A stretch of 20,291 nucleotides of DNA from a virus: positions 1 to 20,291 of IMG/VR virus record IMGVR_UViG_3300048590_000578; one strand, given 5' to 3'. Below are positions 7,905 to 17,501 of this stretch, in pieces. The position numbers were made by a program, and so were the translations under genes. Position 1 is the stretch's first letter. Each line of letters begins with the position of its first letter. The notes under the pieces are model-generated. The model did no database searches. It was not told where the DNA came from and was given only the letters and a program-made list of their open reading frames with translations.

Positions 7905-8119
7905 TTAAACGTCACACTTAAATTCAATTTCATCCCAATTCTCAACGAACACCGGCCGGCTTCCCTTTTTGTACTTAATTCCATCTGCCAGCTTCATTCT
8001 GATGTTGCAGAGGCTTACACCCCAGAGCATGTATTCATCCGTCCATCCTGTTTTCTCCTGTACGCTCCACAGGAGTCCGAAGGGGCTATGGAGGCCATCA
8101 AAATAGCCTGTTAACTCCC
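7905..8119 (-). CDS. tail assembly chaperone frameshift extension (T part of GT)
   Basis: A coding-like frame ends with TAA at 7905-7907, 11 bases before the tape measure start. It is open back to a TGA at 8229-8231 but contains no ATG, GTG or TTG codon upstream of residue 'DEYMLW'. It lies in the -1 frame of the 153-residue protein encoded just upstream and overlaps its end by 115 nt. The protein reads 'LTGYFDGLHSPFGLLW', then 'EKTGWTDEYMLWGVS', which resembles the T extension of siphovirus tail chaperones. Those extensions recruit the tape measure and tail tube subunits. The missing start and the -1 relation predict programmed frameshifting, as in lambda G/GT, giving a product of about 222 residues. 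Candidate slip points are the GGG codons at 8117-8119 and 8132-8134. No perfect X XXY YYZ heptamer was found. Confidence 0.75.
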
Positions 8120-8572
8120 CCTCGTCGTCGGCCCCAGATTTGGCGCTGTTATCCTGGTTGCTATCGCTAATCTGGTAATACTCATAAAAGACTTTGTGCC
8201 CGAAAACTGCCTTATCATTGTATAGAGTTCAAGCAATTGCCATGCACTTAATTGCCTTAACAAGTATTTGCGCAGCCAAAGAGCCGGCTTTGTTATGTAT
8301 TTACGGTTGAGTGTTGCAATTGCCACAACTGTAAGTATGTCGTTGTAATACTCAAGCATAAATTTACCAGGTTCGGTCTCGTCTGCTTTTTTATCGGTTA
8401 TGCCTCTTGCGGTTAATATAGCAGCCATTTTTAACTCTGTGCCGGCATACAATTGTGTTATTGTTATGCCTATATTCCTGAGGCCAAGGATGCGTAAAAA
8501 AAGCGGGGCGGGTATATTGTATTTAACGCCCCGCTTTAACAGTGATTGTGCTGCTCTTAGCTCCTCATGCAT
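8111..8572 (-). CDS. tail assembly chaperone (G-like)
   Basis: This 153-residue mostly helical protein is encoded between the major tail protein and the tape measure, the conserved place of the G/GT chaperones. Its start overlaps the stop of the major tail protein gene (TAATG at 8570-8574). It includes 'FMLEYYNDILTVVAIATL' and 'WLRKYLLRQLSAWQLLELY', helices that resemble Bacteroidota tail chaperones by my reading. The last dozen residues (APNLGPTTRGS) look unstructured, fitting a frame that is often left by -1 frameshifting. The protein would bind the tape measure during tail assembly and be absent from the virion. A frameshifted version carries the T domain encoded at 7905-8119. Confidence 0.65.
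   Translation of the reverse strand: MHEELRAAQSLLKRGVKYNIPAPLFLRILGLRNIGITITQLYAGTELKMAAILTARGITDKKADETEPGKFMLEYYNDILTVVAIATLNRKYITKPALWLRKYLLRQLSAWQLLELYTMIRQFSGTKSFMSITRLAIATRITAPNLGPTTRGS
8117..8135 (-). promoter_or_regulatory. candidate -1 frameshift region of the G/GT chaperone
   Basis: Two runs of G lie near the end of the G frame: GGGG at 8132-8135 within CTG GGG CCG, and GGGGG at 8117-8121 within AGG GGG AGT. At either, a tRNA reading GGG can re-pair with GGG one base back. Both predict the same 222-residue product length. Neither is a full X XXY YYZ heptamer, so the exact site is uncertain. Confidence 0.4.
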
Positions 8573-15453: not shown

Positions 15454-16710
15454 ATGGCTATCAACAAAAAAAGGGGCGGCCCTGTAGATATACACCAACA
15501 GGTAATATCTGTGGTAACACATCCGGCACGTATCGAATCACAGGATGTGGGCAACTGGCGCAATGCAGTTAACAGCGCTAAATTAGGTTTACCTAATCAG
15601 CTTTACCGGCTGTACGAAAACATACTTACCGATGGTGTTTTTTCGCGAACGATTGAAAAGCGTATTGAAGCCATTACAAATGCAGAGCTTGTGTTTACCG
15701 ATGTAAATGGTAAATATATAGATGTAATCAATGATATGATTGATACACCCGAATTTGAAAAACTGCTGCGCGAGATTATGCTTGCAAAGGCCTGGGGTGT
15801 AAGTGTTATTGATATTACAAGTGTAATGCCATTCTCTTGCTTCAGTGTACCAAGGCGCAATTTAAATGTAAAAAAGAAACTCATTATGCCCGATGAGTTC
15901 AGCGATGCAGGATTAAACTACGAGGATATACCTTACATCATTGAAGTAAAAAGCGACGACCCCTTCGGTTTCATTTACAAAGCTGCTGTATATGTTATTT
16001 ATAAAAGGGGTGGATATGGCGACTGGGCTCAATTTATTGAGATATTCGGTATGCCATTCAGGCAGGGTGAATATAATGCACACGACCCGCAGAGCCGCGA
16101 CGAGCTCATTAAAAGCCTTACAAATATGGGTGGAGCATCATGGGCTGTTGTGCCTAAGGAGTCTAACCTTAAGATTACACCCATGTCGCAGGGTTCAAAT
16201 GGCGATTTATATGATAAGTTCCTCGACCGTTGCGATAAGGAGATACTTATAAGCGTACTCGGGCAAACAATGACTACTGTTGACGGCTCAAGTAAATCAC
16301 AGAGCGACACACACAAAGAGGTTGAGGAGGATATTAATAAAGCCGATCGCCGATTTGTGCGCAGGGTGTTAAACACACTTGTATTGCCTGTACTCGAGCT
16401 TGGCGGACTGCCTGTAAACAATGGCTGGTTTATGTTCCCCGAGCAGGGCGAAGCAATTAGCACCGAGAGTAAGGTAAAGATAGCATTAGACCTGAGGCGC
16501 GAGGGTTTACCTGTGAGCGACGAGTATCTGTATGAAATAAGTGGTGTACGCAAGCCTGCCAAGGGCGAAACGGTAAGCAAACCAGTAAACACATTGCTGC
16601 CGATTGAACCTGAGCTTAGAGATACAACACCACAAGCAAGCGTATTAGACCGGTTTTTCAGTTTTTTCGCGCAAGCCCTCCCAGGCAGGAGGGCACCTTT
16701 AAATTACTAA
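15454..16710 (+). CDS. portal protein, DUF935 (Mu gp29-like)
   Basis: This 418-residue protein starts at the ATG at 15454 (MAINKKRGGPVDIH). A more upstream ATG at 15361 lies inside the adaptor gene and is rejected. Diagnostic DUF935 features are 'LYENILTDGVFSRTIEKRI' early, 'WAQFIEIFGMPFRQGEY' in the middle, then 'DKEILISVLGQTMTT' and 'FVRRVLNTLVLPVLELGG'. It forms the dodecameric DNA gate at the unique vertex. The last 13 codons overlap, in another frame, the start of the gpF-like frame. A slippery heptamer at 16662-16668 and a hairpin at 16675-16694 predict that a fraction of ribosomes shift -1 after codon 405 and make a portal-gpF fusion of 682 residues. Ribosomes that do not shift end at TAA 16708-16710. 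Confidence 0.88.
   Translation: MAINKKRGGPVDIHQQVISVVTHPARIESQDVGNWRNAVNSAKLGLPNQLYRLYENILTDGVFSRTIEKRIEAITNAELVFTDVNGKYIDVINDMIDTPEFEKLLREIMLAKAWGVSVIDITSVMPFSCFSVPRRNLNVKKKLIMPDEFSDAGLNYEDIPYIIEVKSDDPFGFIYKAAVYVIYKRGGYGDWAQFIEIFGMPFRQGEYNAHDPQSRDELIKSLTNMGGASWAVVPKESNLKITPMSQGSNGDLYDKFLDRCDKEILISVLGQTMTTVDGSSKSQSDTHKEVEEDINKADRRFVRRVLNTLVLPVLELGGLPVNNGWFMFPEQGEAISTESKVKIALDLRREGLPVSDEYLYEISGVRKPAKGETVSKPVNTLLPIEPELRDTTPQASVLDRFFSFFAQALPGRRAPLNY
16662..16694 (+). promoter_or_regulatory. programmed -1 ribosomal frameshift signal (portal to gpF)
   Basis: Bases 16662-16668 are T TTT TTC in the portal reading frame, the canonical X XXY YYZ heptamer. A 6-nt spacer (16669-16674) follows. Then comes a perfect 7-bp stem, GCCCTCC (16675-16681) and GGAGGGC (16688-16694), around a 6-nt loop. 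Spacing and geometry match known -1 frameshift stimulators. There is no T-run after the stem, so it is not an intrinsic terminator. After the slip the reading continues in the gpF frame to 17501. Confidence 0.8.
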
Positions 16711-17501
16711 TTGATTCCACTTACCAGGGCTATGTTACGGCCGCTGCACCCGATGCCGATGAAACATTAAACGATCTTATTAACCGTGCCCTTAAAGCCA
16801 TATACGATGAAGCTGTTGATGTAAAAAAAGGAATTGAGCCAAACTTTTACAGCATTACACTCGATCAAATGAATGATGCTGTAAATAATGCTTTCCCTTC
16901 AATATCAACCGATGACCCCGACTATTCTTTTGTTCAGCAACTGCTAAAGAACAATAAGGTATTTGCCGCTTTTAAAACACACAGGCAGCAGAATGACATT
17001 GCACGGCAGTTGGTTAACGATGAAGGTAAGCTTAAGAGCTTTGCCGATTTTAAAAAGGATGTAGCCGGGCTGGTTGGTGATTATAACATGAATTGGCTTA
17101 AGACTGAGTACGATACAGCTGTTATACGCGCCCGCATGGCAAGCCGCCTTAAAGAGTTTGAGCGCGATTCCGATCTTTACCCGAATCTAAAATGGGTAAA
17201 AAGCACATCAGCACAAAAGCGCGAAATACATGAAAAGCTTTATGGACTTATTTTGCCAATAACCCATACATTCTGGACAAAGCATTACCCTGGCACGCTA
17301 TGGAATTGCAAGTGCGGTATTACCAACACCGATGAGCAACCAAATGGCGAGCGCTACGGCATTGAGCAGTATAATGAGCCTGTACCTGCCGGACTCGAAG
17401 AAAACCCGGCATTCAGCGGCGCAATCTACTCAAAAAAGCATCCTTACCGTACACAAGCTTATGCAGGTGCGGCCAAGGCTGTTAAAAATCATGTAAAATG
17501 A
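16668..17501 (+). CDS. gpF-like minor head protein, expressed as a portal frameshift extension
   Basis: This is a Mu gpF/SPP1 gp7-type minor head protein. Diagnostic parts are 'NNKVFAAFKTHRQQNDIARQ', 'DEGKLKSFADFKKDVAGLV', 'YNMNWLKTEYDTAVIRARMA', 'KLYGLILPITHTFWTKHYPG' and the Cys-x-Cys motif in 'LWNCKCGITNTDEQ'. The first ATG in frame is at 16869, but clearly coding sequence lies upstream ('DADETLNDLINRALKAIYDE'). From 16668 to 16869 the 67 codons contain no ATG, GTG, TTG or CTG. With the -1 slip after portal codon 405, this frame adds 277 residues. A 210-residue product from 16869 is the alternative. gpF proteins sit at the portal and help head assembly and DNA ejection, so fusion to some portal subunits makes structural sense. 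The stop overlaps the gpG start (ATGA). Confidence 0.82.
   Translation, partial: RASPPRQEGTFKLLIDSTYQGYVTAAAPDADETLNDLINRALKAIYDEAVDVKKGIEPNFYSITLDQMNDAVNNAFPSISTDDPDYSFVQQLLKNNKVFAAFKTHRQQNDIARQLVNDEGKLKSFADFKKDVAGLVGDYNMNWLKTEYDTAVIRARMASRLKEFERDSDLYPNLKWVKSTSAQKREIHEKLYGLILPITHTFWTKHYPGTLWNCKCGITNTDEQPNGERYGIEQYNEPVPAGLEENPAFSGAIYSKKHPYRTQAYAGAAKAVKNHVK

What the first reader, a model, noticed from the sequence alone, without database searches (positions are those of the whole stretch)
16662..17501. Programmed -1 frameshift fusing the portal to the gpF-like minor head protein
Seen directly: the gpF frame is -1 relative to the portal, has no ATG/GTG/TTG/CTG in its first 67 codons although these look coding, and the portal end carries T TTT TTC in the correct phase. 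A 6-nt spacer and a perfect 7-bp GC-rich hairpin follow. All canonical elements are present together. Known cases of phage -1 frameshifting are mainly tail chaperones, capsid decorations and some transposase-like genes; Mu encodes gp29 and gp30 separately. Inference: a minority of portal subunits carry gpF as a C-terminal domain (682 residues), which would set the gpF:portal ratio on the unique vertex.
Basis: partly seen in the sequence, partly recalled or inferred. Interest (0 to 1): 0.88.

Follow-up and report, generated by a model that had tools for sequence, protein, structure and literature searches.

The report
Ribosomal frameshift fuses portal to gpF
In this Bacteroidota phage, and in a large group of its relatives, a conserved slippery sequence plus RNA hairpin at the end of the portal gene lets some ribosomes shift back one base, so that some copies of the DNA-entry portal carry the minor head protein gpF (in some relatives with a toxin-like tail) as an extra domain.

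Summary
T TTT TTC lies in phase at 16662-16668, with a 6-nt spacer and a perfect 7-bp stem at 16675-16694. The gpF frame (-1) has no usual start codon before 16869. Comparative evidence makes a programmed -1 frameshift close to certain. The same motif with a 9-nt spacer hits 10 contigs, none of them portal or gpF. In a protein-based sample, 46 of 46 dereplicated loci that carry the in-phase T-run have a 6-10 bp stem starting exactly 6 nt downstream, with compensatory changes. The codon before the T-run is always NNT although the residue varies. Rarer relatives use other X XXY YYZ heptamers (A AAU UUU, A AAA AAG, G GGA AAG) with the same 6-nt spacing. In a third arrangement portal and gpF are in one frame, yet heptamer and hairpin persist; there, slipping would yield a portal-only product, as in dnaX. 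The frame roles switched at least six times on the portal tree while the signal stayed. Hankyphage carries the signal, with gpF ending in a predicted glutamine-deamidase domain. I found no earlier description in the open papers held. Efficiency and stoichiometry are untested.

The parts
15454..16710 (+). portal protein gene (Portal_Mu/DUF935), 0 frame, 418 aa; stop codon TAA at 16708-16710
16662..16668 (+). slippery heptamer T TTT TTC in phase with the portal frame
   Evidence: conserved in relatives
16669..16674 (+). 6-nt spacer GCGCAA
   Evidence: all 46 dereplicated loci have a stem that starts exactly after 6 nt
16675..16694 (+). stimulatory hairpin: 7-bp stem GCCCTCC/GGAGGGC, loop CAGGCA
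   Evidence: compensatory changes in relatives
16668..17501 (+). gpF (Phage_Mu_F) part read in the -1 frame after the slip, 277 aa, stop at 17499-17501
16869..16871 (+). first ATG of the gpF frame; rejected as the gene start (inside helix 58-75, absent in L180)

Best explanation
The portal gene ends in a programmed -1 ribosomal frameshift site. Ribosomes that reach U UUU UUC with Phe-tRNAs in P and A sites are held by the hairpin 6 nt downstream; a fraction slip back one base, pass the portal stop and go on through gpF, making a 682-aa portal-gpF fusion. The rest stop at 16710 and release the 418-aa portal. Both products share the portal's N-terminal 405 residues and can enter the same ring, so the slip rate would set how many gpF copies (in many relatives with an attached toxin-like domain) sit at the portal vertex. 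In the sister group with both proteins in one frame, the same site would work in reverse, as in dnaX: non-slipped ribosomes make the fusion and slipped ones make portal alone. Shown here by sequence: the element, its phase, spacing, covariation, interchangeable heptamers, and the absence of a conserved gpF start. Inferred: that slippage happens on the ribosome, its rate, and the mixed ring.
For: 1) Anatomy complete and in phase. 2) Motif searched as DNA only in 2.9 million viral contigs: 118 of 120 hits encode portal and/or gpF; the same motif with the spacer 3 nt longer gives 10 hits in the whole collection, 0 of 10 portal or gpF. 3) Sample found by portal protein only: of 106 loci with both genes, 80 have gpF in -1 with an in-phase T-run, 1 has gpF in -1 with in-phase G GGA AAG, and 13 are in-frame fusions that keep the T-run. 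4) All 46 loci dereplicated at 70% portal identity that carry the in-phase T-run have a stem starting exactly 6 nt on; pairs 5 and 6 take four to five pair types and pair in 46/46, against a shuffle maximum of 35 and 31. 5) The codon before TTT TTC/T is NNT in 141/141 dereplicated loci, with 11 different codons, where 22% of upstream codons are NNT (loci were chosen for the T-run). 6) Other heptamers obey X XXY YYZ with the same 6-nt spacer and a stem: A AAU UUU (L285), A AAA AAG (L286), A AAA AAA (L290), G GGA AAG (L155, L282). 7) Type B stops 6 nt after the heptamer, before the stem, so the stem there is not kept for the 0-frame protein; in type C gpF is not in the -1 frame, so it is not kept for that either. 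8) No conserved start: 71 of 111 have no ATG within 30 codons of the slip and 39 no ATG/GTG/TTG; 35 of 57 type-A loci lack a start near the portal stop.
Against: No experiment here shows slippage or the fusion protein. The hairpin of the window alone is not more stable than expected for its composition. Some relatives, among them hankyphage, also have an ATG overlapping the portal stop, so gpF could additionally be made alone by coupled re-initiation. A few relatives lack the signal: plain in-frame fusions (e.g. L145, L156) and separate genes with ATG starts (L003, L013, L014, L321), so the mechanism is not indispensable for the family. The dereplicated sets used for points 4 and 5 hold only loci that carry the in-phase T-run.
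Confidence: 0.93

Rival explanations
1. Separate gpF gene with its own start: re-initiation after the portal stop, a non-standard start such as ATT at 16710, or the ATG at 16869; heptamer and hairpin are incidental.
For: AGGAGGG in the 3' arm of the hairpin resembles a Shine-Dalgarno sequence some 15 nt before ATT 16710; 13 of 57 type-A relatives have an ATG, and 9 a GTG/TTG, at the portal stop. Separate genes with ATG exist in L003, L013, L014, L321.
Against: The start is not conserved while the heptamer is; ATG 16869 is inside a confident helix and absent in L180; L290 has no start within 200 codons; type C has no need of a start yet keeps the element; the first codons after the slip align with hankyphage from residue 1.
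Confidence: 0.04
2. Transcriptional slippage on the T run (RNA polymerase adds or skips U) rather than ribosomal slippage makes the fusion message.
For: A homopolymer run is present, and poly-A runs occur in L286 and L290.
Against: Runs are nearly always exactly six T in one fixed codon phase, whereas polymerase slippage does not depend on phase; non-homopolymer heptamers A AAU UUU and G GGA AAG stand at the same place with the same spacing; a stem 6 nt DOWNSTREAM is the layout for ribosomes.
Confidence: 0.03
3. Sequencing or assembly error, or a decayed gene: portal and gpF are really one frame.
For: In-frame fusions exist in relatives (L010, L011 and others).
Against: The -1 arrangement with the identical element recurs in over 100 independent contigs and in named genomes and cultured phages (hankyphage BK010646, Elizabethkingia TCUEAP3, Bacteroides oleiciplenus, Hoylesella oralis); the portal tail after the slip is closed at a conserved distance.
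Confidence: 0.005
4. The conserved nucleotides are kept only by the protein sequence (an FFxxAPxxxxGA motif), not as an RNA signal.
For: In types A and C the 0 frame reads FF..AP....GA over the stem.
Against: In type B the 0 frame ends before the stem, and the stem survives; paired positions covary; the codon before FF keeps T in its third position while the residue changes; other heptamers replace FF altogether.
Confidence: 0.01

Closest known systems
Tail assembly chaperone -1 frameshift of tailed phages (lambda G/GT; SPP1 17.5/17.5*, which uses the same UUUUUUC heptamer, PMC6316719)
   Same: canonical -1 heptamer in a phage structural operon giving a short and a C-terminally extended protein in a set ratio
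   Different: here the pair is portal and gpF/MuF of the head; the products would be virion components of the portal vertex, not tail chaperones; a mirror-image in-frame version exists
Capsid or tail-tube frameshifts giving mixed virion subunits (Listeria PSA, Lactobacillus A2 capsid; SPP1 gp17.1/17.1*, 3:1)
   Same: a shifted minority of structural subunits carries an extra C-terminal domain
   Different: the subunit is the dodecameric portal and the extra domain is the MuF minor head protein
In-frame portal-MuF fusions of Microbacterium phages, clusters EA/EB (PMC7302621) and PHROG 35074/220
   Same: same two proteins joined in the same order
   Different: single-frame fusion; no slippery site described
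SPP1 gp6-gp7 (portal with minor capsid protein; one to two gp7 per capsid, PMC5576092; strong gp6-gp7 binding, PMC6316719)
   Same: MuF protein held at the portal in few copies, supporting the start of infection
   Different: non-covalent, separate genes; here the link would be covalent and the copy number set by recoding
dnaX tau/gamma frameshift (from general knowledge)
   Same: type C relatives: 0 frame gives the long protein, a -1 slip soon meets a stop and gives the short one
   Different: phage portal gene; the window itself has the opposite layout
MuF polymorphic toxins of temperate phages (PMC5576092)
   Same: relatives' gpF carries Gln_amidase, CdiA_C or PBECR2 domains
   Different: that paper describes separate muf genes; here the toxin-bearing MuF would be joined to the portal by frameshifting; the window's gpF has no such domain

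Membership tests
programmed -1 ribosomal frameshift site | X XXY YYZ heptamer in the 0-frame phase | tested here: met
   16662-16668; same phase in all -1 relatives that carry it
programmed -1 ribosomal frameshift site | stimulatory structure 5-9 nt downstream | tested here: met
   stem 6 nt on, 7 bp; 46/46 relatives at 6 nt with covariation
programmed -1 ribosomal frameshift site | evolutionary conservation of the signal beyond what the proteins require | tested here: met
programmed -1 ribosomal frameshift site | measured slippage and trans-frame product | not testable with these tools
   needs reporter assay or mass spectrometry; hankyphage virion mass spectrometry exists (PMC12135933, S6 Table) but the file could not be read here
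Portal_Mu (PF06074, Mu gp29) | profile match over the whole domain above cut-off | tested here: met
   E 8e-65, 219.9 bits against cut-off 23.9
Phage_Mu_F (PF04233, Mu gp30/gpF, MuF) | profile match above cut-off, gene directly downstream of portal | tested here: met
   34.1 bits against 29.6; adjacency
MuF polymorphic toxin | C-terminal toxin domain after MuF | tested here: not met
   window gpF ends after the MuF domain (277 aa); met in relatives L006, L043, L011, L019, L040
tail chaperone G/GT frameshift | gene pair between major tail protein and tape measure | tested here: not met
   the pair lies between terminase and neck genes and encodes portal and gpF
Rfam RNA family | match at gathering score | tested here: not met
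   0 matches in the window; no curated family covers this element

The most novel reading that the evidence does not exclude
A large clade of Bacteroidota phages builds a mixed portal ring by recoding: a -1 frameshift whose signal outlives repeated swaps of which frame is long and which is short fixes how many of the twelve portal subunits carry gpF (in many phages a gpF-toxin), so that the MuF cargo is covalently part of the portal and its dose per virion is set by the ribosome.
Probability: 0.6. Interest if true: 0.87.

Novelty: new variant of a known kind. Interest (0 to 1): 0.77.

Why it matters
It changes the gene model of a widespread group of phages, including the common gut hankyphages, whose portal and MuF genes are annotated as separate. 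It gives a concrete answer to how a low copy number of MuF protein could be placed at the unique vertex, a question open since SPP1 gp7 was found at one to two copies. The swapped-frame relatives offer a natural test: selection kept the signal while long and short products changed frames, so what is selected is the presence of both products. Prediction programs for frameshifts and phage annotation pipelines can use the motif directly.

Tried and rejected
Fold energy of the window alone: not significant, so I turned to comparative evidence. Profile-based locus search with 29 diverse portals failed for lack of a conserved stretch; smaller alignments worked. Own-genome search: the window is the whole virus record, so nothing was added. 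Met16869 start: rejected. Upstream Shine-Dalgarno stimulator as in dnaX: only 20 of 141 loci have an SD-like motif within 20 nt, so not a general part. Poly-A heptamers in plain in-frame fusions (L145, L236, L253): in lysine-rich linkers, without strong stems and with early -1 stops; left undecided. L141 and L174 have gpF in +1, probably indels in assemblies; not used as evidence. L076 and L108, the two motif hits without portal or gpF, look like chance. Fold search of the gpF model in PDB gave no meaningful match. Rfam: no match. Literature: the papers read on hankyphage, Porphyromonas phages and PRFect do not mention a portal frameshift; term searches found no such case.

Full report
OBSERVATION. 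The portal gene runs 15454-16710 (Portal_Mu). Its last codons are ..CGG TTT TTC AGT TTT TTC GCG CAA GCC CTC CCA GGC AGG AGG GCA CCT TTA AAT TAC TAA. The heptamer T TTT TTC is at 16662-16668, the spacer GCGCAA at 16669-16674, and the stem-loop GCCCTCC-CAGGCA-GGAGGGC at 16675-16694. gpF (Phage_Mu_F) is open in the -1 frame from 16620 to its stop at 17499-17501, and its first ATG/GTG/TTG/CTG is the ATG at 16869. A slip joins 405 portal residues to 277 gpF residues, 682 in all.

IS THE UPSTREAM PART OF gpF REAL? Yes. Between window and L002 the stretch from the portal stop to Met16869 has substitutions 4/7/28 at codon positions 1/2/3 of the -1 frame (19/14/33 against L180), and L180 has no Met at that place. 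AlphaFold2 on the post-slip sequence with 28 relatives gives mean pLDDT 91 and pTM 0.88. Residues 1-8 are disordered, and helices start at residues 10, 32 and 58. Met16869 is residue 68, inside helix 58-75, so a start there would remove two helices and break the third. tblastn aligns hankyphage and other Bacteroides phages from residue 1 of this post-slip sequence.

IS THE SIGNAL CONSERVED? I took two routes. First, a DNA pattern without protein information, TTTTTTCG NNN A N GCYCC N{1-15} GGRGC, was run over IMG/VR. The same pattern with the spacer lengthened by three returned 10 contigs in the whole collection, none with portal or gpF. In whole genomes the pattern hit 3 of 395 in the phylum of Bacteroides clarus, at the same places as portal loci already found there (L273, L275, L279), and 1 of 398 in the phylum of Stenoxybacter. 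Second, relatives were fetched by portal protein alone: 123 loci, 106 with both genes. Of these, 80 have gpF in -1 with an in-phase T-run (76 TTTTTTC, 4 TTTTTTT); 1 (L155) has gpF in -1 with in-phase G GGA AAG; 13 are in-frame portal-gpF fusions that keep the in-phase TTTTTTC (12 listed after removing L146, whose T-run lies elsewhere, plus L142 seen); 9 are in-frame fusions without it; and 3 are others. In 46 loci dereplicated at 70% portal identity, found by protein and carrying the in-phase T-run, every one has 6-8 consecutive pairs starting exactly 6 nt after the heptamer. Pair 5 occurs as C-G, G-C, T-A and A-T; pair 6 as G-C, C-G, T-A, A-T and T-G. Both pair in 46/46, against a shuffle maximum of 35 and 31. 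Across 141 loci dereplicated at 80% that carry the T-run, the codon before it is always NNT but is eleven different codons, where only 22% of upstream codons end in T. This last count is conditional on the T-run, so it shows diversity of the residue rather than a free test.

INTERCHANGEABLE HEPTAMERS. Where the T-run is missing and gpF is still in -1, other canonical heptamers stand at the same junction, again followed by 6 nt and a stem: A AAU UUU in L285, A AAA AAG in L286, A AAA AAA in L290, G GGA AAG in L155, and G GGA AAG in L282 with a 12-bp stem closing a long branched loop. This is hard to explain by anything but tandem slippage on the ribosome, and it speaks against RNA polymerase slippage on a homopolymer.

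THREE ARRANGEMENTS. Type A (window, hankyphage): the 0 frame runs through the stem and stops 15-54 nt after the heptamer. Type B: the 0 frame stops at once (usually GAC TAA) before the stem. Type C (Porphyromonas phages, Bacteroides clarus and Pedobacter zeae prophages): portal and gpF share one frame, yet the in-phase heptamer and stem remain, and the -1 frame closes 47-122 nt on. A slip in type C therefore yields portal alone, a mirror image of the window's layout, comparable to dnaX tau/gamma. On a portal tree of 132 loci the three types need 15 changes, type C alone 7, at least 6 of them forced by well supported branches; the window's type-A group of three sits beside a type-C group with full support (FastTree, so approximate). 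The stem is thus kept whether or not the 0 frame covers it and whichever frame holds gpF, which excludes a purely protein-level reason. Because type C retains the signal too, what seems selected is that both products exist.

NOT A CONSERVED START. In 111 dereplicated -1 loci, 71 have no ATG and 39 no ATG/GTG/TTG within 30 codons after the slip. In type A, 35 of 57 have no start codon at the portal stop. Hankyphage does have an ATG overlapping the stop, which is why annotators split the genes there; some phages may use both routes.

HOW FAR IT REACHES. Hosts named in the records are Bacteroidota (Bacteroides, Parabacteroides, Prevotella, Hoylesella, Pedobacter, Chryseobacterium and others), apart from one Aliivibrio-labelled MAG that may be contamination. 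In the control phylum (Stenoxybacter's), none of 7 portal loci with a recognised gpF has the T-run. Cultured or named phages with the signal: hankyphage p00 (BK010646) and its kin, and Elizabethkingia phage TCUEAP3 (stem GCTCCTCA/TGAGGAGC, different in sequence, same place). Porphyromonas phages are type C. Winoviridae (Peternella, lotta8-1, FPSV-S1) lack it.

FUNCTION. [quoted passage not shown] A fusion made by a fraction of ribosomes would achieve the same low number by incorporation into the portal ring. In relatives the gpF part continues into Gln_amidase (hankyphage, L043), CdiA_C (L019, L040) or PBECR2 (Porphyromonas L011) domains, the kind of cargo described for MuF toxins (PMC5576092); in those phages the frameshift would dose the cargo. 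The window's own gpF has no such extension. Rate, ratio and assembly are inference.

KNOWN OR NEW. -1 frameshifts in phage structural genes are well known, and in-frame portal-MuF fusions have been noted (Microbacterium EA/EB, PMC7302621; PHROG 35074 and 220 span both). The same heptamer is used in SPP1 17.5 (PMC6316719). I found no report of a portal-MuF frameshift; the hankyphage, Porphyromonas phage and PRFect papers are silent, and Rfam has no family matching the window. The library holds open-licence papers only, so an earlier mention elsewhere is possible.

Noticed in passing
window 7905-8572, minus strand: The 153-aa gene between tail tube and tape measure is followed by an open -1 frame region without an own gene; a GGGGGAG run lies just before its stop. 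Probably the usual tail chaperone G/GT frameshift pair.
   Followed up: partly
L154, L158, L159, L161, L170, L172, L175, L176, L177: Chitinophagaceae-type genomes carry a Portal_Mu gene that ends before the linker, with no gpF, no slippery site and other conserved genes around it; perhaps a domesticated element.
   Followed up: no
L006, L043, L011, L019, L040: gpF C-termini of relatives carry Gln_amidase, PBECR2 or CdiA_C domains: toxin-like cargo that would be attached to the portal.
   Followed up: partly
L155, L282, L285, L286, L290: Other canonical slippery heptamers at the same portal-gpF junction in Bacteroidota genomes, one with a long-range 12-bp stem.
   Followed up: yes
window 16668-17501 model: Confident AlphaFold model of the gpF/MuF domain has no convincing match in the PDB, so the MuF fold appears not to be represented by a solved structure detectable by Foldseek.
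   Followed up: partly
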